Shown piece after piece: positions 1 to 10,194 of a stretch of DNA of 64,000 nucleotides (its first letter is position 1; each line of letters opens with the position of its first letter). The stretch spans positions 2,790,001-2,854,000 of the forward strand of contig NZ_JARUBF010000001.1 of the NCBI RefSeq assembly GCF_029626025.1, written 5' to 3'. Made by a program: the position numbers and the translations under genes. Below the pieces are notes generated by a model. That model did no database searches and was not told the DNA's origin. It saw only the letters and a program-made list of their open reading frames with translations. This DNA comes from Solwaraspora sp. WMMD406 (GTDB lineage Bacteria; Actinomycetota; Actinomycetes; Mycobacteriales; Micromonosporaceae).

Positions 1-524
1 CGAAGTGGACCAGGATCCCCCGGCAGGAACCCGGTTTCCGGATGGCGATGGCGGTCACCGACTCGGCGTCGGCCGCCCGCTACGGATTGCACACCGCGCA
101 GCTGTGCCACTCCTCGGTGACACCGGACGGCGGGCACACCGCCACCGACTGCCGGTCGGCCACCGAGGCGCAGCTGGGGACCGCCCTCGACGCGATGGTT
201 CCCAGCACGGTCGAGGGGGTACGGGCGATCGACCCGGCCGCGGTCTGGGCCCGGCCGCAGGCGTACCCGTTGACGATGGTCAGCTACGCGGTCGCGGACA
301 CGTCGGCGCCGGCCGATGCCCGCCGCGACTACGCCGGCCTGCTGCGGCACGCCGCCGGGCCCGGACAGACCCCGGGCGTCGAGCCGGGCACCCTGCCGGA
401 AGGCTACGTGCCGTTGCCGGCGGCGTGGCGCGAGCAGACCCGGGCCGCCGCGGACCTGCTGGAGCGCTACGTCGCGCCCACCACGCCGGCACCCACACCC
501 GGTCCCACCCCGTTACCTTTTTGA
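1..524 (+). pseudogene. 5' part of a PstS-like surface protein, cut by an IS110 element (left end outside window)
   Basis: The frame is open from the left edge and ends at a TGA (522-524) supplied by the inserted element. The visible residues resemble the C-terminal lobe of PstS-type phosphate-binding proteins, including the YPLTMVSYAV stretch, followed by a Thr/Pro-rich linker (PTTPAPTPGPTPLP). The same frame resumes at 1980 with more Pro/Ala linker and a membrane helix. The intact protein was therefore probably an extracellular solute-binding domain on a C-terminal membrane anchor, rather than the usual lipoprotein. The truncated product would lack the anchor and be released. Family assignment is moderate because the N-terminal domain is not in the window. 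Confidence 0.7.
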
Positions 525-749
525 TCGTCCCCAGCCGGGGACTGCTCGGTCGCCCGGCTCGGTATGACTGAATGCCCCTGTCGTACGCATGATCCGGGGG
601 GTGTTGTCGCCGAGCCGGGTGGCGTCGGCGGACCGCTGATAGGGACCCGGCCACCCCGTCGTGGGGTAGGTCTCTCCGTAACGTGGATGCCGGCAGTCCG
701 ACGCTATGACCAGCGGCCGAGCCAGGCCATCGCCGTGAGGAGGCAAGCT
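519..749 (+). ncRNA. Non-coding left end of the IS110 element; candidate bridge RNA region
   Basis: This 231-nt stretch precedes the transposase. In IS110-type elements the non-coding left end encodes a bridge RNA with target- and donor-binding loops (established for IS621). It contains small hairpins, such as TCCCC-AGCC-GGGGA at 529-542. It also holds short matches to the junctions: ATAGGGAC (639-646) recurs at 1964-1971 near the right end, and ACCCGG plus CCACCCCGT (645-659) recurs in the left flank (497-513) with a 2-nt gap. The RNA itself is not demonstrated. Confidence 0.45.
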
Positions 750-1955
750 GTGCACGACGGGTTCGGCGTCTTCATCGGACTCGACGTCGGCAAGGAAGGA
801 CACCACGCGGTCGCGTTGAACCGCGACGGCAAGCGGCTGCACGACGCGACGCTGCCCAACACCGAAACCGGGCTGCGGAAACTGTTCGACAAACTCGCCC
901 GGCACGGCCAGATCCTGGCCGTGGTCGACCAGCCCGCCTCGATCGGCGCGCTGCCCGTCGCGGTCGCCCGCGCCTGCGGCCACCAGGTCGCCTACCTGCC
1001 CGGTCTGGTCATGCGCCGCCTGGCCGACCTGCACCCCGGCACCGCGAAGACCGACGCCCGCGACGCCTACGTCATCGCCGACGCCGCCCGCACCCTGCCC
1101 CACACCCTGCGCCGGGTCGACACCGGCGACGACGCCCTGGCCGAGCTGGAGGTGATGGTCGGCTACGACGACGACCTCGCCGGCGAGGTCACCCGCGTCG
1201 CCAACCGCATCCGGGGCCTGCTCACCCAGATCCACCCACCCCTGGAACGCGTCCTCGGCCCGAAACTGCAGCACCCCGCCGTCCTGGAAGCCATCTCGCG
1301 GTGCGGCGGACCCACCGGCATCCGCAAGGCAGGCCGGGCGAAACTCACCGAGATCGTCAAGGCCCGCGCGCCACGCATGGGCGCCCGCCTGGTCGACCAG
1401 ATCTTCACCGCGCTCGACGCGCAGACCGTCGTGGTTCCCGGCACCACCGCCGCCGAGACCGTCCTTCCCCGACTCGCCGACAACCTGCGTGACCTGCTGC
1501 GCCAACGCGACAAGGTCGCCGAACAGGTCGAAGGGATGCTTGATGCGCACCCTCTTGCCCCGGTCCTGACCTCGATGCCCGGCATCGGCGTCAGGACCGC
1601 GGCCCGCATCCTGCTCGAAGTCGGCGACGGCACCTCGTTCCCCACCCCCGGCCACCTGGCCGCCTACGCCGGCCTGGCCCCGGTCACCCGCCGCTCCGGC
1701 ACCAGCATCCGTGGCGAACACCCACCCAAGGGCGGCAACAAGCAGCTGAAACGCGCGTTCTTCCTGTCCGCGTTCGCCGCTCTCGCCGACCCGCTCAGCC
1801 GCGCCTACTACGACCGCAAACGCGCTGAGGGCAAGAAACACAACGCCGCCCTCATCTGCCTCGCCCGCCGCCGCGTCGACGTCCTCCACGCCATGCTCCG
1901 CACCCAACGGCCATACCAGCCCAAACCGGCGGACGAACCCCGCCTCGCTGCTTGA
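750..1955 (+). CDS. IS110-family transposase (DEDD RuvC-like plus Tnp20 domains)
   Basis: This is the recombinase of the insertion sequence, 401 residues. The N-terminal RuvC-like domain shows the first Asp in IGLDVGKEGH and the paired Asp in KTDARDAYVIADAART. The usual Glu position appears as VVDQPASIG, a variant I believe is common among actinobacterial members. The C-terminal Tnp20 domain carries MPGIGVRTAARILLEVGD, then AAYAGLAP and RRSGTSIRG, which should contain the serine nucleophile. I chose the GTG at 750 because an AGGAGG-like site lies about 8 bases upstream; an in-frame extension back to 564 would run through the element's non-coding end. It looks intact and potentially active. 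Confidence 0.93.
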   Translation: MHDGFGVFIGLDVGKEGHHAVALNRDGKRLHDATLPNTETGLRKLFDKLARHGQILAVVDQPASIGALPVAVARACGHQVAYLPGLVMRRLADLHPGTAKTDARDAYVIADAARTLPHTLRRVDTGDDALAELEVMVGYDDDLAGEVTRVANRIRGLLTQIHPPLERVLGPKLQHPAVLEAISRCGGPTGIRKAGRAKLTEIVKARAPRMGARLVDQIFTALDAQTVVVPGTTAAETVLPRLADNLRDLLRQRDKVAEQVEGMLDAHPLAPVLTSMPGIGVRTAARILLEVGDGTSFPTPGHLAAYAGLAPVTRRSGTSIRGEHPPKGGNKQLKRAFFLSAFAALADPLSRAYYDRKRAEGKKHNAALICLARRRVDVLHAMLRTQRPYQPKPADEPRLAA

Positions 1956-1979
1956 CAGAACCCATAGGGACACCCCCCT

Positions 1980-2258
1980 GCCGCCGCCCCGCCCACCGAT
2001 CCGGTGCCGCCGCCCACCGCCGCGCCGTCGCTGCCGACCGCGCCGCCGGACCCCGGCGACAACCCGTCGCCGGGACTGGTCGCTAGCCCGCCGCAGCCCG
2101 AGGTGGCACCGGCCGCCCGGGCCACCCCCGCCAGTCCACTGGGCATGGTGCGGTATCTGCTGATCGCTGCCTTGCTGGTCGGGCTGGTCGGCGGCATCGC
2201 CGGACCGATCCTGCGGCGACTCGCCACCAGGCCACCAGCCGGAACGGCCGGTCCGTGA
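1980..2258 (+). pseudogene. 3' part of the IS-split PstS-like surface protein (linker and membrane anchor)
   Basis: This segment continues the frame of the fragment that ends at 524. It encodes a Pro/Ala-rich linker, then one hydrophobic helix (YLLIAALLVGLVGGIAGPIL) and a basic tail (RRLATRPP), the layout of a C-terminal stop-transfer anchor. It has no convincing start of its own; a GTG at 2004 sits inside the linker without a clear Shine-Dalgarno. It is best read as the orphaned 3' end of the interrupted gene. The downstream PstS-like gene begins 151 bp later. Confidence 0.7.
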
Positions 2259-2409
2259 CACCGGGGCACCGCCAGGCCGGTCACCGTTCATCCGGCCTAC
2301 GTGTTGGCGGAACACACCAGCCCGAAACGTTCGCCTGCCGGCGGTATCTCCCCACGCCGGTCACGAAAGACGATACCCACGGCCCATCTGCCAGCAGAAA
2401 GGGAGCAGG

Positions 2410-3546
2410 ATGAAAATCAGATCGATGGGGCGGTTGGTGACCGTCGGCCTCGGCGCCGTCGTCGCCCTGACCGTCGCGGCCACCCCCGCGGTCGCGGATC
2501 CGTCGCCCGTCACCGAATACCGGACGCTCGCCGCCACCGGATCGGACACCACTCAGGACGTCCTCAACGGACTGGGCAACGTGATCACCTCCGGCGGCAA
2601 CCGGGTCATCGCCTCCTGGGACGCCCGGGGCACCGCGACCATCAAGACCAAAGCCAGCGGGTGCACGTTCAACCGGCCCAACGGCTCCGGCAACGGACGT
2701 CGGGCGCTGCGCGCGTCCAACGGCGAGGACCTCGGCGGCACCCACGGCGGCGCCGGCTTCTGGGAAGGCACCAACGTCCAGGGCTGCGTCGACGTCGCCC
2801 GGTCGTCGTCGTACGGCGGCGGCGAGACTCCGTCGACCACCGGCAACTACACCTACATCCCGTTCGGGGTGGACGCGCTGTCGCTGGCGGTCAACCAGAA
2901 CGGCGACCTGCCGTTCAACATGTCGTTCGCGCAGATCCAGCGGGTCTACAAGTGCTTCGACAGCCGCATCGCGGGCAACCCGGTGCAGCCACGGGCCATC
3001 CAGGCCGGCTCCGGCACCTGGGAGTTCTGGATGACCAAGATGCAGATCAACGAAACCGAGATCAGCCTCGGTGACTACCCCTGCCTGACCACCCTTCCCC
3101 GGGTGCAGGAGCACGACGGCACCGCGCTGACCGGCAACCCGACCCACGTCCTGCCGTTCAGCTCCGGGCAGTTCCTGGCGCAGTCCAACACCGCCGCCAT
3201 CCAGAACCTGACCGGTGTGACCGTCGCCGACCGGCGCGGTCCGGCCCGGCCGGTCGGGGTCAGCATGCCCGGCCAGCCGGTCGTGCAGCCGATCGTCGGC
3301 GGCGTCACCAACCCCAACTTCGGTCTGCGCCGGGACGTCTACAACGTCGTCCCGACCGCGAAGCTCACCGACCCGCTGATCGCGTCGACCTTCGTCGGCG
3401 GATCGTCGTCGGTCTGCACCGCGACGGTCGACGACGGCGGCAGCCCGCGCAACGTGGTGCAGCTGTTCGGCTTCGGCCTGCGGACCACCACCGTGGATCC
3501 GCTCAACGCCGCCTGCGGCTACAGCAACCTGCGGTTCAACAGCTGA
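2410..3546 (+). CDS. Secreted PstS-like substrate-binding protein
   Basis: This is a 378-residue exported protein. The signal peptide has a basic start (MKIRSMGR), a hydrophobic core and a likely AVA-D cleavage site near residue 33. There is no lipobox, so it is secreted or held by partners. The mature part begins with TGSDTTQDVLNGLGN and has SGTWEFWMTKM mid-protein, both at positions where PstS-type binding proteins contact the anion. The start has a GGGAGCAGG ribosome site directly upstream. It follows a second, membrane-anchored PstS-like gene and precedes the LPNTG gene. Phosphate binding is plausible but unproven, because no PstC or PstA permease gene lies nearby. Confidence 0.75.
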   Translation: MKIRSMGRLVTVGLGAVVALTVAATPAVADPSPVTEYRTLAATGSDTTQDVLNGLGNVITSGGNRVIASWDARGTATIKTKASGCTFNRPNGSGNGRRALRASNGEDLGGTHGGAGFWEGTNVQGCVDVARSSSYGGGETPSTTGNYTYIPFGVDALSLAVNQNGDLPFNMSFAQIQRVYKCFDSRIAGNPVQPRAIQAGSGTWEFWMTKMQINETEISLGDYPCLTTLPRVQEHDGTALTGNPTHVLPFSSGQFLAQSNTAAIQNLTGVTVADRRGPARPVGVSMPGQPVVQPIVGGVTNPNFGLRRDVYNVVPTAKLTDPLIASTFVGGSSSVCTATVDDGGSPRNVVQLFGFGLRTTTVDPLNAACGYSNLRFNS

Positions 3547-3562
3547 CCTGTCAGCACCGTGC

Positions 3563-3594
3563 GGGTCCGGGCCACCGTCAGGTGACCCGGACCC
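3563..3594 (+). terminator. Hairpin between the PstS-like and LPNTG genes
   Basis: GGGTCCGGG and CCCGGACCC form the outer stem, and an inner CACC/GGTG stem closes a GTCA loop with one mismatch between them. No T-run follows, so it may attenuate rather than stop transcription of the downstream surface genes. Confidence 0.6.
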
Positions 3595-3625
3595 ACCGCA
3601 CGTCGGAGCACCACCGGAGGAGACC

Positions 3626-5266
3626 ATGACCAGGACCGGGCGATACCGGACCCTCGCCGCGTCGACCGTCGCCCTCGTCGGCCTCGGCGCCGTCGTCGTC
3701 GCGACGCTGCTGGCGCTGACCGCGCCGGCGCAGGCGGCGTCGTTGGGCGAGGTGCAGTTGTCGCAGACCAGCGGCGGTGTGTCGGATGAGCCGATGTTCG
3801 TCAGCGCGTCGAGTGCGGCGTGTCCGGCGGGGTTCGGGGAGAACGCTGGTTTGCGGATCGGTCGTCCGGGTGGGCCGTACTCGAATCTGGGTCGTCCGCT
3901 TGGTGGTGGTGGGTTCGATTCGGCGCCGGTGACGATCGAGGCGAACCGGTCGTTCACCACGGCGATCGGTGGGTCGGCTCCGGCGGCGGGTGAGTGGTGG
4001 GTGATCATCGAGTGCTACAGCCTGACCGAGGGGCGGCACCCGGACGAGTTCGTCACCCCGATCACCGTCTGTGACACCCTGTGGCGGGTCGGCAGCGGTT
4101 GCGGCGCCGCCACCACGACCCAGCTGACGCTGGTGACCGAGCCGGCCGGCCAGGTGCCGTCCGGTGCCGAGGTGACGCTGACCGCCACCGTCGAGCCGGC
4201 GACCGCGACCGGCGTCGTCCGCTTCCGCAGCAGCACCGACGACGGCAACGGCGCGCCCGGCGACCTCGGCGAGGCGACCGTCACCGACGGCGTCGCGCGC
4301 CTGGCCACCACCGGCCTCACCGTGGTTTTCGGCACGCAGGTCGCGTACACGATCACGGCCAGTTTCGTCCCGGCCGATACCGACGTATACGCACCGTCGT
4401 CGGCGACCGCCCCACTCCTGGCATACGTCGGGTTGCCGCCCGCCGGGCTGGCTCTGGAGGTCAGCCCGGACAGCCCCGCGCCAGCCGGTGCTCCGGTCGT
4501 GCTGACCGCCCGTACCAGTCCGGGTGACGTCGCCGGCACCGTCAGCTTCAGCCGTAGGCTGGCCGACGCGCCGGTCTTCGAGCCTTTCGCCGAGCAGGCC
4601 GTCACCGCCGGGACGGCGACGGCCACAGTCTCGGGGCTGGCCGCCGGCCGCTACGACTTCCAGGCCCGGTTCGTGCCGGCGGCCGACAGCGGGTACGCCG
4701 AGTCGGAGTTCGTCACCCTGGCCGGCTACCAGATCGGCACCGCCGCCGAGCCGCAGTCGACCAGTACGTCGTTGACCGTGTCGCCGGCCGGGCAGCGGAC
4801 CGTGGACACCGAGCTGACCCTCACCGCGACGGTCACGCCGAACGCGGCCGCCGGCAGCATCCGGTTTCTCGACGGTGACGTCACCCTGGCCACGGTCATC
4901 CTCAGCGGTGGGACGGCCAGCCACCGTACGGCGTCGCTCGCCCTCGGCAGCCATCAGCTCAAGGCCGTCTTCGTGCCGGCGGACGCCGAAGCCTACACCG
5001 CCTCCGAGTCGCCGGTGACCACTGTGGAGATCACCGCCAGCGGTGGTGGCGGTGGTGGTGGAGGAGGCAGCGGTGGTGGTGGAGGCAGTGGTGGTGGGAA
5101 CGACGACAGGCTGCCGAACACCGGTCTGCCGCTGATCACCATCGGGCTTGTCGGTCTGTCGCTGATCGGCGTCGGCTCGGGCACGCTCCTGGCCACCCGC
5201 CGTCAGCCGCAGCGACCGCCGGTGGACTGGCCGGACGCCGACGTGCCGGACGGCCCCCGGCCATGA
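3626..5266 (+). CDS. LPXTG-anchored Ig-repeat surface protein
   Basis: This 546-residue exported protein has a signal peptide ending near AQAASLG. Next comes a domain of about 110 residues with two Cys (AACPAGFG and IIECYSL) that is nearly identical to one in the protein at 7358. Three or four bacterial Ig-like (Big_5-type) repeats follow, recognised by LTATVEPATATGVVRF and LTATVTPNAAAGSIRF. A Gly/Ser-rich linker leads to the sorting signal LPNTG, a hydrophobic helix and a TRR tail. It should be cleaved at LPNT-G by a sortase and linked to peptidoglycan. A GGAGGAG site precedes the ATG. The stop overlaps the sortase-like gene by 4 bases, implying co-translation. Confidence 0.88.
   Translation: MTRTGRYRTLAASTVALVGLGAVVVATLLALTAPAQAASLGEVQLSQTSGGVSDEPMFVSASSAACPAGFGENAGLRIGRPGGPYSNLGRPLGGGGFDSAPVTIEANRSFTTAIGGSAPAAGEWWVIIECYSLTEGRHPDEFVTPITVCDTLWRVGSGCGAATTTQLTLVTEPAGQVPSGAEVTLTATVEPATATGVVRFRSSTDDGNGAPGDLGEATVTDGVARLATTGLTVVFGTQVAYTITASFVPADTDVYAPSSATAPLLAYVGLPPAGLALEVSPDSPAPAGAPVVLTARTSPGDVAGTVSFSRRLADAPVFEPFAEQAVTAGTATATVSGLAAGRYDFQARFVPAADSGYAESEFVTLAGYQIGTAAEPQSTSTSLTVSPAGQRTVDTELTLTATVTPNAAAGSIRFLDGDVTLATVILSGGTASHRTASLALGSHQLKAVFVPADAEAYTASESPVTTVEITASGGGGGGGGGSGGGGGSGGGNDDRLPNTGLPLITIGLVGLSLIGVGSGTLLATRRQPQRPPVDWPDADVPDGPRP
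3720..4070 (+). repeat. 351-bp near-perfect direct repeat, copy A (partner 7437-7787)
   Basis: Aligned by eye with an offset of 3717, the two copies differ at one base (G at 3961 versus T at 7678), giving Ala versus Ser in the protein. The identity starts at the end of the signal peptide and stops abruptly at the end of the Cys-containing domain. Codon choice inside is rich in G/T third positions (GGT, CGT, TTG), unlike the C-rich flanks. Confidence 0.95.
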
Positions 5267-6237
5267 CCACCACGCTGCCACCGGCGGCGCTGTCGACGCC
5301 ACCCGTACCGGACCCGGTCCGGCGACCGGAACCGTCCGACCCGGTCGGGTCGTCGCTGCCGCCGCAGCGGCTCACCTACTACCTGCCCGGCACCGCGCTG
5401 ACCATCCTCGCCGTGGTGCTGCTCGGCTTCGTGGTGCACCTGACGGTCATCTCCCACCTGCAGTACGCCCGCAACCAGCAGACCGCGTTCGCCGACTTCC
5501 GTGCGGACCTGGCCCGGGGCACCGCGCCAGTCGGCCAGACCCAGGTCGAGTACGTCGACGGAGTTGCCGGCCAGGAGCATGTCGTCGACCCGGGTACCCC
5601 GGTCGCGGTGCTGCGGATTCCAGCGATCGACCTGCAGACGGTGGTGGTCTCCGGCACCAGTGGCGAGACGCTGCGGCAGGGGCCGGGCCACCGCCGTGAC
5701 ACGGTGCTGCCCGGTCAGCCCGGCACCAGCGTCCTGCTCGGCCGCAAAGGCGCCTACGGTGCCCCGTTCCGAGACCTGGACCTGCTGCTGCCCGGCGACG
5801 AGATCGTGGTGGTCACCGGACAGGGTGAGCACACCTATCGGGTCCTCGGTGTACGCCGGGCCGGCGACCCGGTTCCGGCGCCGCTGACCGACGGCGACGG
5901 CCGGCTCACCCTGGTCACCGCCGACGGACCGCGCTACCTGCCCCAGGATCTGCTGCGGGTCGACGCCGACCTGGTGTCCGAACCGCAACCCGCGCCACCC
6001 CGACGGTTCGGCGCGGCGGCGCTACCCGCCAGTGAACAGGCACAAGCCGGCGACGACGCCGCGTGGACGCCGCTGATGCTGTGGTGTCAGGCGCTGTTCC
6101 TGGCCGGGTTGGCCGTCGCCTACCTGCGGGCGCGGTGGGGCGGCTGGCAGGCGTGGATATGCGGGCTGCCGGTGTTCGCCGCCCTCGGGTTCGCCGCCAC
6201 CGACCAGATAGCCCGACTGCTGCCGAATCTCCTGTGA
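5263..6237 (+). CDS. Sortase-fold membrane protein lacking the catalytic His and Cys
   Basis: This 324-residue protein has one N-terminal membrane helix, an extracellular sortase-like domain and two C-terminal helices. Class D/E sortase landmarks are visible: VLRIPAIDL, GPGHRRDTVLPGQPG, GAPFRDLDLLLPGDEI and LTLVT. Where sortases carry the catalytic His (GHRTTYG-type) this protein reads GRKGAYG, and where TLVTC would give the nucleophile it reads TLVTA. Both residues are missing, so transpeptidase activity is unlikely. It may act as a scaffold or recognition partner for the LPNTG and LPRTG proteins encoded beside it. Its ATG overlaps the upstream stop (ATGA). A mis-aligned active site is possible but the motifs are clear. 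Confidence 0.85.
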   Translation: MTTTLPPAALSTPPVPDPVRRPEPSDPVGSSLPPQRLTYYLPGTALTILAVVLLGFVVHLTVISHLQYARNQQTAFADFRADLARGTAPVGQTQVEYVDGVAGQEHVVDPGTPVAVLRIPAIDLQTVVVSGTSGETLRQGPGHRRDTVLPGQPGTSVLLGRKGAYGAPFRDLDLLLPGDEIVVVTGQGEHTYRVLGVRRAGDPVPAPLTDGDGRLTLVTADGPRYLPQDLLRVDADLVSEPQPAPPRRFGAAALPASEQAQAGDDAAWTPLMLWCQALFLAGLAVAYLRARWGGWQAWICGLPVFAALGFAATDQIARLLPNLL

Positions 6238-6260
6238 CGTACCTCGACAAGGGAACTGCC

Positions 6261-7208
6261 ATGGCCGCTGCCGCCGAAGCCGACCTGACCCGCACCCGGC
6301 TGGACCTGGCCGCCGTGGGTGACCAGCCGCCCGATCCCGATCGTGACGACGCGCATGGCTCTGCCCCTGGCCGGGCCGGCGACGCCGCTGGCGCGGTCGG
6401 CGACGCCCCGGGACGGGCCGGCGACGCGGCCGCGCTGGGAACCCTCGACGCCCGAGCGGTCTCCGCCTGGTTCGGCGAACGCAAAGTGCTCGACCGGGTG
6501 TCGCTGACCATGCCGGCCGGGCAGGTGACCGCGCTGATCGGCCCGTCCGGATGCGGCAAGTCGACGTTCCTGCGGATCCTCAACCGGATGCACGAGCTGG
6601 TACCCAGCGCTGCCCTCGCCGGAGAGGTCCTGCTCGACGGGCACGACCTCTACTCGCCGCAGCGTCGGCTGACCGACGCCCGCCGACAAGTGGGCATGGT
6701 GTTCCAGAAACCCAACCCGTTCCCCGCGATGTCGATCTACGACAACGTGCTCGCCGGCCTCAAACTCACCGGCACGCGGGCTTCCCGGTCCGTCCGCGAC
6801 GACCTGGTCGAGGAGACACTCAGCAAAGCCGGCCTCTGGAAGGAGGTCCGGGACCGTCTACGTTCCCCCGGCGGGGCGCTTTCCGGCGGGCAACAGCAAC
6901 GGCTCTGTATCGCCAGGTCGCTGGCGATCCGCCCCCGAGTGCTGCTGATGGACGAACCGTGCTCCGCGCTGGACCCGACCTCCACCCGCCGCATCGAGCA
7001 GACCATCGCCGAGCTGGCCAGCGAAGTCACCATCGTGATCGTCACCCACAACATGCAGCAGGCCGCCCGGGTGTCCCATCGATGTGCCTTCTTCCTCGCC
7101 GAACACGGCACACCAGGGGCGATAGTCGAACATGGATCGACCGCTGCGATGTTCGACGCGCCGCGCGACGAGCGGACCGCCGACTACGTGCACGGCCGGT
7201 TCGGATGA
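6261..7208 (+). CDS. PstB-type ABC transporter ATPase with an N-terminal extension
   Basis: This 315-residue cytoplasmic ATPase has Walker A GPSGCGKST, Q-loop FQKPNPFP, signature LSGGQQQR, Walker B VLLMDEP and the switch His in VTHNMQQA. The GMVFQKPNPFPAMSIYDNV block is typical of PstB, the energiser of phosphate import. PstB is usually near 250 residues; here about 60 Ala/Asp/Gly-rich residues precede the nucleotide-binding domain. I chose the ATG at 6261, with AAGGGA about 7 bases upstream, over a GTG at 6234 that overlaps the previous stop. No permease gene is adjacent, so its membrane partner is unknown. Confidence 0.88.
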   Translation: MAAAAEADLTRTRLDLAAVGDQPPDPDRDDAHGSAPGRAGDAAGAVGDAPGRAGDAAALGTLDARAVSAWFGERKVLDRVSLTMPAGQVTALIGPSGCGKSTFLRILNRMHELVPSAALAGEVLLDGHDLYSPQRRLTDARRQVGMVFQKPNPFPAMSIYDNVLAGLKLTGTRASRSVRDDLVEETLSKAGLWKEVRDRLRSPGGALSGGQQQRLCIARSLAIRPRVLLMDEPCSALDPTSTRRIEQTIAELASEVTIVIVTHNMQQAARVSHRCAFFLAEHGTPGAIVEHGSTAAMFDAPRDERTADYVHGRFG

Positions 7209-7357
7209 GCGTCGCTGGGGCCGGCACCGGAAGTTAGCCTCCCGCACGTTCGGCGGAGACGTTGGCCTGCCCACCGGGTCACGACCCGTGTGAAGCCTGA
7301 GTGCCGGCCGGACCAGCAAGGCCCGGCCTAGCGCCACCTCAAGAGAGGAAGTGATTC

Positions 7358-8551
7358 ATGAGCAAGCGTGTGTTCGCTCGTGCGGCCGCGCTGCTGGGCG
7401 CCGCCGCGCTCACCGGCGGCGTGCTGGTGGCCGTCGCCGCGCCGGCGCAGGCGGCGTCGTTGGGCGAGGTGCAGTTGTCGCAGACCAGCGGCGGTGTGTC
7501 GGATGAGCCGATGTTCGTCAGCGCGTCGAGTGCGGCGTGTCCGGCGGGGTTCGGGGAGAACGCTGGTTTGCGGATCGGTCGTCCGGGTGGGCCGTACTCG
7601 AATCTGGGTCGTCCGCTTGGTGGTGGTGGGTTCGATTCGGCGCCGGTGACGATCGAGGCGAACCGGTCGTTCACCACGTCGATCGGTGGGTCGGCTCCGG
7701 CGGCGGGTGAGTGGTGGGTGATCATCGAGTGCTACAGCCTGACCGAGGGGCGGCACCCGGACGAGTTCGTCACCCCGATCACCGTCTCCGGCACCACCTG
7801 GCGGGTGCCGATCGCCGAGGCCACCAGCACCACGCTCGCCGTCGCCCCGGCCAGCCCGGTCGAGCAGGGCGACGAGGTCACCCTGACCGCGACGGTCACC
7901 CCCGGTGCGGCCGAGGGAACCGTACAGTTCCGTCGGGGTGCCTCGGTCATCGGCACCGCGCCGGTCACCGGCGGGACCGCCACCCTGACCACCACCGCGC
8001 TGCCGGTCGGCACCCACTCGCTGACCGCGACCTTCACCCCGGCTGACGCCACCGCCTTCAGCGGCTCGGTGTCGTCCGCAGCGACCTACACGATCACCGC
8101 GAGCAGCGGCTCGATCAACGACCAGCAGGAAATCATCGCCGACGTCGAAGCCGGCGCGTTCACCCTGGACGTCGCGGGCGACACCGCACTGCTCACCGGC
8201 GGATCGGTCGGCGGCTCGGCGACCGGCGAACTGCACAGCGCCACCGTCACCGACCTGCGCGGCAGCAACGCCGGCTGGGACCTGACCGGTCAACTCGCCG
8301 ACTTCGTCGGTCCGACCGCGACGATCTCCAGCGGCAACCTCTCGTGGACCCCGTCGGCCACCCGTACCAGCGGGTCCGGTGTGGTCACCGCCGGTGCCAC
8401 CGCCGACCTGGGGGAAACCCGCACCCTCTGCTCGACCGCCGTCGGTGCCAGCGCCGGCCAGTTCACCTGCGACGCAGACCTGGAGCTTGCCGTCCCGGAC
8501 GACGTCGCGCCCGGCGAGTACAGCGCGACCCTGACGCTGACTCTGGCCTGA
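7358..8551 (+). CDS. Secreted Ig-like/WxL-domain surface protein
   Basis: This 397-residue exported protein starts at an ATG behind an AGAGGAAG site. The signal peptide ends near AQAASLG. The next 110 residues are the duplicated Cys-containing domain shared with the protein at 3626. One Ig-like (Big_5) repeat follows (LTATVTPGAAEGTVQF), then a C-terminal WxL-type domain of about 150 residues. That domain shows AGWDLTGQLADF and ISSGNLSWTP, the two Trp motifs that define WxL, and ends in a beta-rich LTLTLA. WxL domains bind peptidoglycan non-covalently in Firmicutes. The downstream DUF916-type gene fits that pairing. Confidence 0.85.
   Translation: MSKRVFARAAALLGAAALTGGVLVAVAAPAQAASLGEVQLSQTSGGVSDEPMFVSASSAACPAGFGENAGLRIGRPGGPYSNLGRPLGGGGFDSAPVTIEANRSFTTSIGGSAPAAGEWWVIIECYSLTEGRHPDEFVTPITVSGTTWRVPIAEATSTTLAVAPASPVEQGDEVTLTATVTPGAAEGTVQFRRGASVIGTAPVTGGTATLTTTALPVGTHSLTATFTPADATAFSGSVSSAATYTITASSGSINDQQEIIADVEAGAFTLDVAGDTALLTGGSVGGSATGELHSATVTDLRGSNAGWDLTGQLADFVGPTATISSGNLSWTPSATRTSGSGVVTAGATADLGETRTLCSTAVGASAGQFTCDADLELAVPDDVAPGEYSATLTLTLA
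7437..7787 (+). repeat. 351-bp near-perfect direct repeat, copy B (partner 3720-4070)
   Basis: This copy carries T at 7678 where copy A has G, turning TTAIGG into TTSIGG. It encodes the N-terminal domain of the WxL protein. The sharp identity boundaries at both ends of the domain suggest recent gene conversion or domain transfer within the locus. Confidence 0.95.
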
Positions 8552-8604
8552 CCCGTCAGCCGGCGCCGCCGACCCATGTCGCCGGCGCCGGTCCAACCCG
8601 ACCA

Positions 8605-8640
8605 GGGTGGGGACGACGCGACATCGCGTCGTCCCCACCC
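8605..8640. terminator. Strong hairpin after the WxL gene
   Basis: Perfect 16-bp arms, GGGTGGGGACGACGCG and its complement, flank the 4-nt loop ACAT. It sits midway between the WxL gene and the DUF916-type gene. No T-tract follows, as is common in high-GC actinobacteria. Confidence 0.85.
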
Positions 8641-8674
8641 GCCGTAATTCGACGTCACCCGTGGAGCCGCCGAG

Positions 8675-9769
8675 ATGAGCACGAACCCACGCAGCACCCG
8701 CGTCCTCGCCCCGGCCACCCCGGTACGGGTGGGCCGAGCGGTGGCCCTGCTGCTCGCCCCGCTGCTCGCCCTGACGCCGGCGCCGGTCGCCGCCGCCCCT
8801 GGGCCACTCAGTGCGCAGGCATCTACCGTCCCCGCCGACGAGTTCCGGTGGAGTGTGCAACCGTCCAGCCCGAGCGGCCCCAACGGCCGCAGCGAGTTCG
8901 AATACGAGCTCGCCCCCGGCGAGCGGATCAGCGACTGGCTGGCGATCAGCAACCTGACCGACGGTCCGCTCACCGTCGACGTCTACGCCACCGACGCCTT
9001 CACCGCGCCGGACGGCGGCTTCGCGTTGCTCCCGGCCGCCGACGCACCGACCGGCGCGGGAGCCTGGCTGACCGTGCCGAAATCGGCGTACACCCTGCCG
9101 GCCGGTAAACGCGCGGACATCCCGTTCCAGCTGACCGTGCCGGAAAACGCCACTCCCGGAGACCACATCGGTGGTCTGATCGCGTCGGTGACCACCGACG
9201 AGACGCAACCCGGCGGGCAGACCATCGCGGTCGAGCGGCGGATCGCCGCCCGGGTCTACCTGCGGGTGGCCGGACCAGCCGACCCGCGGGCGCTGATCAC
9301 CGCGGTCGACGTGGACTACGCCGCGCCGCCGCTTGCGGTGCCGGGCGAGGACCTGACCGTAACGTACCGGATCGCCAACGACGGCAACGTCCGCTTCTCC
9401 GGCACCGCCCGGGTCGTGGTCACCGGCCCGCTCGGGATACGCCTGGGCACCAGCGACACGATCGAGATCCCGGAGCTGCTCCCCGACTCGGAACTACGAC
9501 TCACCGAGACCCTTCCCAGCGTGCTCCCCGCCGGCTGGATCAGCGCCACACTGACCGTGAATCCGCAGGCTGGCGAGGACCCGCTGCCGCAACTGACCGG
9601 ATCCGCGTCGATGTGGGCGGTGCCGTGGCTGCTGATCGTGATCGTCGGGGCCGGTGGACTGATCGCGGCAGGGCTGTGGTGGCGTCGCCGCCGTGATCGG
9701 GCCCTGGCCGCCGCTCCCGGTTTCGACGACGATGTGGTCGCCACGACCCATCCGGCGCCGGCGTCATGA
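8675..9769 (+). CDS. WxL-interacting (DUF916-type) membrane protein
   Basis: This 364-residue protein has a signal sequence to about residue 40 (PVAAAPG). Two beta-sandwich regions follow: residues about 50-165 match the DUF916 / WxL-protein peptidoglycan-binding type (FEYELAPGERISDWLAISN, PFQLTVPENATPGDHIGG), and about 165-300 resembles its partner domain. It ends with one membrane helix (WAVPWLLIVIVGAGGLIAAG) and a WWRRRRDR cytoplasmic tail. In Firmicutes such proteins bridge WxL proteins and the membrane. A GGAG site precedes the ATG. Its stop overlaps the next ATG (ATGA), so it is coupled to the LPRTG gene. Confidence 0.85.
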   Translation: MSTNPRSTRVLAPATPVRVGRAVALLLAPLLALTPAPVAAAPGPLSAQASTVPADEFRWSVQPSSPSGPNGRSEFEYELAPGERISDWLAISNLTDGPLTVDVYATDAFTAPDGGFALLPAADAPTGAGAWLTVPKSAYTLPAGKRADIPFQLTVPENATPGDHIGGLIASVTTDETQPGGQTIAVERRIAARVYLRVAGPADPRALITAVDVDYAAPPLAVPGEDLTVTYRIANDGNVRFSGTARVVVTGPLGIRLGTSDTIEIPELLPDSELRLTETLPSVLPAGWISATLTVNPQAGEDPLPQLTGSASMWAVPWLLIVIVGAGGLIAAGLWWRRRRDRALAAAPGFDDDVVATTHPAPAS

Positions 9770-10194
9770 GCCGTCTGGTGCCGCGCCTGCTCGCCGTCGC
9801 CGGAGCCGCCCTGGTTCTCGGCTTGCCGGCGGCCGGAGCGGCCGGGGCGGCCGGCGAATCGGACACCGACGACGGCGTACGGATCGTCGTATCCATCGCA
9901 CCGGCGCCGGGTACGACACCGACCGGCTCGCCCACCCCGAGCGCCTCCCCGACTCCGACGGGCACACCGCCTCCGTCCGTCACGCCGACACCCAGTGGTA
10001 CGGCTCCGCCGTCGACCCTCGCGCCAACCGGGTCTCCGACCACCGCACCACCCGGTGGTGGTCCACTACCTCGCACCGGTGTGGCACTGGGCGGGCTGCT
10101 CGCCACGGGAACCCTGCTCGTCGCCGCCGGTGCCGGCATCCGCCGGCTGGCCCGCCGCCCTGACCCACCCGGAACGCCCGGAGCCGCCCGGTAG
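9766..10194 (+). CDS. Small LPXTG-type surface protein
   Basis: This 142-residue protein starts with a hydrophobic signal sequence (LLAVAGAALVLGLPAAGAAG). A short acidic stretch and a Pro/Thr/Ser-rich stalk (PTPSASPTPTGTPPPSVTPT) follow. It ends in LPRTG, a hydrophobic helix (VALGGLLATGTLLVAAGAGI) and an Arg-rich tail, a complete sortase sorting signal. It contains no folded domain of its own, so it may be a spacer or wall-linked stalk. It is the last gene of the surface locus and overlaps the DUF916-type gene by 4 bases. Confidence 0.8.
   Translation: MSRLVPRLLAVAGAALVLGLPAAGAAGAAGESDTDDGVRIVVSIAPAPGTTPTGSPTPSASPTPTGTPPPSVTPTPSGTAPPSTLAPTGSPTTAPPGGGPLPRTGVALGGLLATGTLLVAAGAGIRRLARRPDPPGTPGAAR

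What the first reader, a model, noticed from the sequence alone, without database searches (positions are those of the whole stretch)
1..10194. A phosphate-binding-like, WxL and LPXTG surface-display locus
Eight adjacent genes on one strand combine parts not usually found together: two PstS-like binding proteins (one on a C-terminal membrane anchor), a PstB-type ATPase without permeases, a sortase-fold protein, LPNTG and LPRTG wall-anchored proteins, a WxL-domain protein and its DUF916-type partner. WxL/DUF916 pairs are known from Firmicutes; the coupling to PstS/PstB-like parts in an actinomycete is what looks undescribed. The PstS-like proteins may be surface ligand binders rather than importers.
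Basis: partly seen in the sequence, partly recalled or inferred. Interest (0 to 1): 0.85.

Follow-up and report, generated by a model that had tools for sequence, protein, structure and literature searches.

The report
Actinobacterial pst operon with dead sortase
Some soil and freshwater actinobacteria carry, beside their ordinary phosphate importer, a second one whose binding protein is tied to the membrane and which comes with a sortase-like protein that has lost its active site; what it takes up is not yet known.

Summary
The window starts inside a larger operon. Yet the neighbourhood is conserved. In 40 loci around matches from a class-wide sample, pstC, pstA and pstS are present in 37 of 37 loci with enough upstream sequence, the sortase-like gene in 26 of 26 with enough downstream, pstB in 24 of 26, the second PstS-like gene in 23 of 26, nine of these weak. 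Gene order is identical in 12 of these 26 and in 49 of 55 selected, closer loci. All 36 genomes have another PstC elsewhere; locus PstCs lie on one side of a 97/96 branch. Locus PstS proteins end in a predicted membrane helix (113 of 113; ordinary PstS 0 of 27). Two further proteins are PstS-fold by prediction. The "sortase" lacks catalytic His, Cys and Arg in 97 of 97. WxL/DUF916 is accessory (13 of 108 DUF916 matches lie near). In this strain IS110 cuts the 805-aa receptor gene from its anchor. Best reading: a second, tethered Pst importer with a pseudosortase subunit; ligand unproven.

The parts
1..524 (+). 3' part of an 805-aa PstS-fold protein gene (SBP805; the ORF begins about 1.9 kb left of the window, L009 14107-16524); truncated here by IS110 before its linker and membrane helix
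   Evidence: model of an intact homologue matches PstS, Foldseek E 2.1e-10
517..1978 (+). IS110-family element, transposase ORF 564-1955 (PF01548, PF02371); an insertion, not part of the operon
   Evidence: (seven copies in the genome)
1979..2258 (+). Remnant of SBP805's Pro-rich linker and C-terminal membrane helix, left behind the IS element
   Evidence: (translated as it stands), compared by eye with C-termini of homologues
2410..3546 (+). PstS-fold protein with signal-peptide-like start, 378 aa (SBP378)
   Evidence: (profile to solved phosphate-binding proteins, best E 5e-7), model pLDDT 90, Foldseek E 1.5e-9
3626..5266 (+). Wall-anchored protein: N-terminal domain, three Big_3_5 Ig-like repeats, LPNTG sorting signal
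5263..6237 (+). Pseudosortase: sortase-fold domain without catalytic His, Cys and Arg, with hydrophobic segments before and after it
6234..7208 (+). PstB-type ATPase with Walker A, Q-loop, signature and Walker B motifs
7358..8551 (+). N-terminal domain as in 3626-5266, one Ig repeat, weak WxL-like C-terminal domain
8675..9769 (+). DUF916 (WxLIP PGBD) protein with hydrophobic C-terminal segment
   Evidence: PF06030 39.4 bits; segment seen in the translation
9766..10194 (+). Small protein with Pro/Thr-rich stretch and LPRTG sorting signal

Best explanation
A dedicated second Pst-type ABC importer whose capture proteins are held at the cell surface. Shown by sequence or prediction: a complete PstC-PstA-PstB transporter; a PstS with a C-terminal membrane helix instead of a lipid anchor and a nearly complete phosphate pocket; two more PstS-fold proteins, one with a C-terminal helix and a large extra N-terminal domain, one secreted; and a pseudosortase with membrane helices on both sides in most members. 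Inferred: the tied PstS feeds the permease; the other two PstS-fold proteins capture or present a phosphate-bearing ligand further out, or scaffold the receptor; the pseudosortase no longer joins proteins to the wall but serves as a membrane subunit that holds extracellular partners at the transporter. In this lineage Ig/LPXTG and WxL-DUF916 proteins add contact with the wall. In this strain the IS110 insertion should release the 805-aa receptor from the membrane.
For: Genes kept together across families; locus PstCs on one side of a 97/96 branch; a PstC outside the locus in 36 of 36 genomes, so an extra system. PstB motifs intact in 92 of 92 rows. Locus PstS: C-terminal helix 113 of 113 against 0 of 27, lipobox-like 3 of 113 against 18 of 27; E. 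coli S38, R135, S139, G140 equivalents kept in 109, 103, 110 and 113 of 113; D56 equivalent E in 85, D in 26, S in 2 (numbering by the alignments and recalled residue numbers). PstS folds of SBP378 and SBP805. Pseudosortase: His, Cys, Arg absent in 97 of 97; a hydrophobic segment after the domain in 97 of 97 and before it in 90.
Against: No binding or transport data. PHO boxes (score 12.9 or more) stand before the ordinary pstS in 14 of 19 stretches (own 13.1) but before the locus in 0 of 55 loci with the extra first gene and 8 of 56 without it (controls 5 of 1114); this operon has none, so phosphate control is not general. SBP805 and SBP378 seem to lack D56 and R135 equivalents. The wider loci vary: order identical in only 12 of 26, two without pstB, three without SBP378, one with SBP805 before pstC. 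No contact between the pseudosortase and any partner was tested. PstB and PstS score just under the NCBIfam cut-offs.
Confidence: 0.5

Rival explanations
1. The complex is mainly a sensor or surface-attachment assembly: Pst parts were recruited for ligand sensing or wall contact, and transport is secondary or lost.
For: Two of three PstS-fold proteins seem to have lost key pocket residues; Ig, LPXTG and DUF916 parts in part of the loci; no PHO box in most loci.
Against: ATPase motifs intact in 92 of 92 rows, PstC and PstA over cut-off, PstS pocket mostly kept.
Confidence: 0.25
2. The importer takes something other than free phosphate (a phosphorylated or phosphonate compound, or another oxyanion), which explains the D56 to E change, the extra receptors and the rare PHO boxes.
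For: D56 equivalent is E in 85 of 113 and the F11 equivalent is W in 112 of 113 (numbering); PHO boxes rare; another PstC is present in 36 of 36 genomes.
Against: S38, R135, S139 and G140 equivalents mostly kept; D is still there in 26 of 113, among them Streptomyces and Acidimicrobiia loci.
Confidence: 0.2
3. A wall-crossing relay like the S. aureus Isd haem system (recalled), with the operon's own sortase anchoring wall receptors.
For: Sortase-like gene inside an ABC importer operon; LPXTG proteins in this operon.
Against: No catalytic His, Cys or Arg in 97 of 97; clear sorting signals only in part of the loci. A relay using the housekeeping sortase (L165, residues intact) stays possible here.
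Confidence: 0.03
4. Chance neighbourhood of an ordinary pst operon and unrelated surface genes.
Against: Core genes together in 24 of 26 class-sample loci with both flanks; own PstC branch; ordinary pst elsewhere.
Confidence: 0.02

Closest known systems
PstSCAB phosphate importer (canonical, as at C1:6635337 in the same genome)
   Same: PstC, PstA, PstB and PstS homologues; PstS pocket mostly kept
   Different: C-terminal membrane helix instead of lipobox, two extra PstS-fold proteins, pseudosortase, no PHO box here
Dual Pst systems: Pst1/Pst2 of Streptococcus pneumoniae (PMC4913102) and Synechocystis (PMC3199254); listing and start of abstract seen, not read further
   Same: A second, separate Pst importer in one cell
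   Different: The parts of the abstracts seen mention no sortase, membrane-tied PstS or extra PstS-fold proteins
Class E sortase (SrtE1 of Streptomyces coelicolor, PMC5148588; passages seen)
   Same: Sortase domain by sequence profile
   Different: Catalytic His, Cys and Arg (His251, Cys320, Arg329 in SrtE1) replaced in 97 of 97, judged against this genome's own class E sortase; hydrophobic segments after the domain
WxL/WxLIP (DUF916-DUF3324) cluster (PMC10599100; abstract and section 2.2 read)
   Same: DUF916 protein next to a WxL-like protein
   Different: No DUF3324 match in Pfam, one weak WxL-like protein in the window part rather than two, beside a pst operon; accessory
Isd haem uptake operon of Staphylococcus aureus (recalled, no call)
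   Same: ABC importer genes next to a sortase-fold gene and wall proteins
   Different: Sortase without catalytic residues here; receptors are PstS-fold

Membership tests
PstSCAB phosphate importer | PstC and PstA over NCBIfam cut-offs | tested here: met
   237.4 against 196.45; 206.3 against 193.45
PstSCAB phosphate importer | PstB and PstS over NCBIfam cut-offs | tested here: inconclusive
   335.5 against 343.2; 203 against 205 (both just under, best family in each case)
PstSCAB phosphate importer | Phosphate-coordinating residues in PstS | tested here: met
   S38, R135, S139, G140 equivalents kept in 103 to 113 of 113; but D56 is E in 85, D in 26, S in 2, so met with one common change
PstSCAB phosphate importer | Lipid-anchored PstS as in Gram-positive bacteria | tested here: not met
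   lipobox-like 3 of 113 (ordinary 18 of 27), C-terminal helix 113 of 113
PstSCAB phosphate importer | PHO-box control | tested here: not met
   own locus best 11.4; 0 of 55 and 8 of 56 loci at 12.9 or more; ordinary pstS 14 of 19; motif recalled
PstSCAB phosphate importer | ATP-dependent phosphate uptake | not testable with these tools
   needs a transport assay
Class E sortase | Catalytic His, Cys, Arg | tested here: not met
   0 of 97 for each, against the genome's intact class E sortase (L165)
Class E sortase | NCBIfam NF033747 cut-off | tested here: not met
   82.6 against 160 (window protein only)
WxL/WxLIP cluster | DUF916 (PF06030) | tested here: met
   39.4 against 27.3
WxL/WxLIP cluster | DUF3324 second domain | tested here: not met
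   no such match listed at E up to 1
WxL/WxLIP cluster | WxL domain with dual W-x-L motif | tested here: inconclusive
   18.7 against cut-off 25; one motif
WxL/WxLIP cluster | At least two WxL proteins per WxLIP (cluster definition of PMC10599100) | tested here: not met
   one WxL-like protein among the window genes scanned
Isd-like relay | Active dedicated sortase | tested here: not met

The most novel reading that the evidence does not exclude
An envelope complex of a new sort: an ABC importer with three PstS-fold receptors, two of them membrane-tied, in which a sortase fold, stripped of catalysis, has become a permanent membrane subunit that binds partner tails or wall peptide, so that the transporter is fixed under the wall and fed by surface-held receptors.
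Probability: 0.35. Interest if true: 0.85.

Novelty: new variant of a known kind. Interest (0 to 1): 0.7.

Why it matters
A seven-gene core recurs in Micromonospora, Actinoplanes, Streptomyces, Jiangella, Cellulomonas, Curtobacterium, small-genome actinobacteria and Acidimicrobiia MAGs, beside another PstC, and carries a sortase-like protein without catalytic residues. If the reading holds, it gives a role for a pseudosortase and a way for thick-walled bacteria to hold importer receptors at the surface. It can be tested in harmless laboratory strains.

Tried and rejected
Chance neighbourhood: rejected for the core. Isd-like relay by the operon's own sortase: rejected by the missing residues. 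WxL/DUF916 as the core: rejected (13 of 108). PHO control: only a minority of loci; searches scanned upstream of pstC, upstream of the extra first gene where present. The 8.0 threshold printed was useless. In some searches the Jiangella loci L023 and L125 are one locus counted twice. The 19 ordinary pstS stretches are those of the 27 found that had over 150 bases to scan. The label "WxL" comes from a query or profile that contains Ig repeats and marks Ig-only proteins, so no WxL count was taken from it. The order count leaves out 25 of 80 named loci for short flanks; these 80 are the best 80 of 429 stretches, a selection towards this genome's protein. The wider first set is less uniform: order identical in 12 of 26 with both flanks, pstB before pstC in 6, SBP378 after the sortase-like gene in 9, none in 3. 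Of the 54 match rows, 40 places were fetched; the rest are this genome's own, second pieces of fetched places, and G004:C141, not fetched. Alignment A1 leaves out L021 (runs of N), L037 (cut by the contig end) and L052 (short). A2 holds 49 of 76 rows, A3 this protein and 40 of 72. In one search a GH[RNK]-like string was found in 4 of 97 sortase rows, none at the aligned catalytic place. One search stopped on a script error and was repeated; one search failed on a file name and was repeated. Promoter, terminator and tRNA scans gave nothing.
Full report
The observation. The element occurs seven times in the genome, this copy included, and sits inside the first gene. One search fetched the DNA left of the window and one search lists its reading frames: a surface protein with an N-terminal domain like that of two window proteins, then pstC, pstA, a pstS with a C-terminal hydrophobic segment, and the start of the 805-aa gene (SBP805). 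NCBIfam gives PstC 237.4 bits (cut-off 196.45), PstA 206.3 (193.45), PstS 203 (205), PstB 335.5 (343.2). A small gene with weak DUF1508 likeness (at most 20.1 bits, cut-off 22, in five members tried) ends just before the pstC start.

Is it a chance neighbourhood? No, for the core. SBP805 is found in 36 of 296 genomes of the class, this one included, and 22 of 115 genera; in a phylum sample it is in 4 of 198, of which two lie outside the class. Around 40 of those matches, with enough sequence on the side concerned, pstC, pstA and pstS are present in 37 of 37, the sortase-like gene in 26 of 26, pstB in 24 of 26 and SBP378 in 23 of 26. Nine of the 23 SBP378 matches are weak (E 1e-61 to 4e-10), and the order is not fixed: identical to the core order in 12 of 26; pstB before pstC in 6; SBP378 after the sortase-like gene in 9; SBP805 before pstC in 1. 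Among 80 named loci, the best 80 of 429, 55 have full flanks; all 55 show PstC, PstS, SBP805, SBP378 and the sortase-like gene, 54 PstB and 53 PstA, and 49 have exactly pstC-pstA-pstS-SBP805-SBP378-sortase-pstB.

It is an extra system. All 36 genomes have a PstC match outside the locus (35 have two or more matches, and G140, 86% complete, has one, on another contig than its locus). This genome's ordinary operon (PstB at C1:6635337) has a lipobox-bearing PstS. A midpoint-rooted tree of 80 PstC proteins (this genome's, 37 first-set and 11 named locus rows; 31 ordinary rows) puts the 49 locus rows on one side of a branch with 97/96 support; three ordinary rows (L157-L159) and one locus row (L046) sit on long branches.

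The receptors. All 113 locus PstS rows (110 distinct) end in a hydrophobic helix by hydropathy, against 0 of 27 ordinary ones; lipobox-like sites 3 of 113 against 18 of 27. By alignment to solved PstS, S38, R135, S139 and G140 equivalents are kept in 109, 103, 110 and 113 of 113; D56 is E in 85, D in 26, S in 2; F11 is W in 112. SBP378 matches solved phosphate-binding proteins by profile (best E 5e-7); its model has mean pLDDT 90, and Foldseek's best matches are phosphate-binding proteins (E 1.5e-9; TM 0.46 to 0.70 by target among the first six). SBP805, modelled on the intact Micromonospora protein of L055 (pLDDT 83.4, pTM 0.82), matches PstS (E 2.1e-10, TM 0.71 by target), with the PstS part at about 338-769, an N-terminal extra domain, a linker and a C-terminal helix. 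Profile alignment suggests that both have lost the D56 and R135 equivalents, while SBP378 keeps GSGT and a serine at S38. In 28 named rows SBP378 is over 550 aa with no C-terminal membrane helix in any of the 28; the added parts look Ig-like by eye, not tested.

The sortase. In all 97 rows (95 distinct) the positions of the catalytic His, Cys and Arg of the genome's own class E sortase (L165) hold other residues: R 93 and K 4; A 76, S 9, G 8, T 3, V 1; V, I, L, A, T, E, S or F. A TLxTC-like string occurs in 0 of 97; a GH[RNK]-like string in 4, not at the aligned place. Alignments to three solved sortases show the same His replacement. A hydrophobic segment follows the domain in 97 of 97 and precedes it in 90. 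The LPNTG and LPRTG proteins are therefore probably anchored by the housekeeping sortase (inference). Clear LPXTG or LAXTG signals were found only in part of the 121 loci scanned.

WxL and DUF916. PF06030 matches in 62 of 296 class genomes; of 108 listed matches 13 lie within 20 kb of SBP805. This genome has three further DUF916 matches, with WxL-like C-termini beside them by eye. So the pair is a widespread module that some of these operons carry. DNA at 3706-4192 and 7423-7897 is 90% identical: a recent exchange or duplication of the N-terminal domain.

Regulation. PHO-box-like repeats (recalled consensus) score 12.9 or more before 14 of 19 ordinary pstS genes, own 13.1. Upstream of the locus they do so in 0 of 55 loci with the extra first gene and 8 of 56 without it, against 5 of 1114 control stretches. 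Five of the eight rows are of the genus of G041 (Jiangella, from the matching contig), two of them one locus. Phosphate control of the locus is therefore not general.

In this strain. SBP805 ends at base 524 of the window at the IS110 junction; its linker and membrane helix follow the element at about 1979-2258. The receptor should still be exported but not held to the membrane (inference).

Literature. Searches listed no paper whose title or abstract start describes a pst operon with a sortase-like gene or an inactive sortase family in actinobacteria; the library holds only open-licence papers and most listed papers were not opened. PMC10599100 was read in abstract and section 2.2 and searched for six terms (none found); PMC5148588 in passages.

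Verdict. A conserved second Pst-type system with tethered receptors and a pseudosortase. The operon and its parts are shown; the transport role, ligand and pseudosortase function are inferred.

Noticed in passing
window 517-1978: IS110 element inserted in the 805-aa receptor gene; seven copies in the genome, this one included.
   Followed up: yes
L009 9540-10190 (left of window): Small conserved gene found in 55 of 121 loci, within 300 bases of pstC in 47; weak DUF1508 likeness, below cut-off.
   Followed up: partly
window 3706-4192 and 7423-7897: N-terminal domains of the LPNTG and WxL-like genes are 90% identical in DNA; a third, diverged copy (68%) lies left of the window.
   Followed up: no
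L165 1051-2154: The genome's class E sortase with His, Cys and Arg in place; the only other match to NF033747 at E 0.001.
   Followed up: yes
L167, L168, L169: Three more DUF916 matches in this genome, with WxL-like C-termini nearby by eye.
   Followed up: partly
   Followed up: no
L015, L016: A version of the locus without pstB within the stretch fetched, in genomes that also hold a second version with pstB (L026, L030).
   Followed up: no
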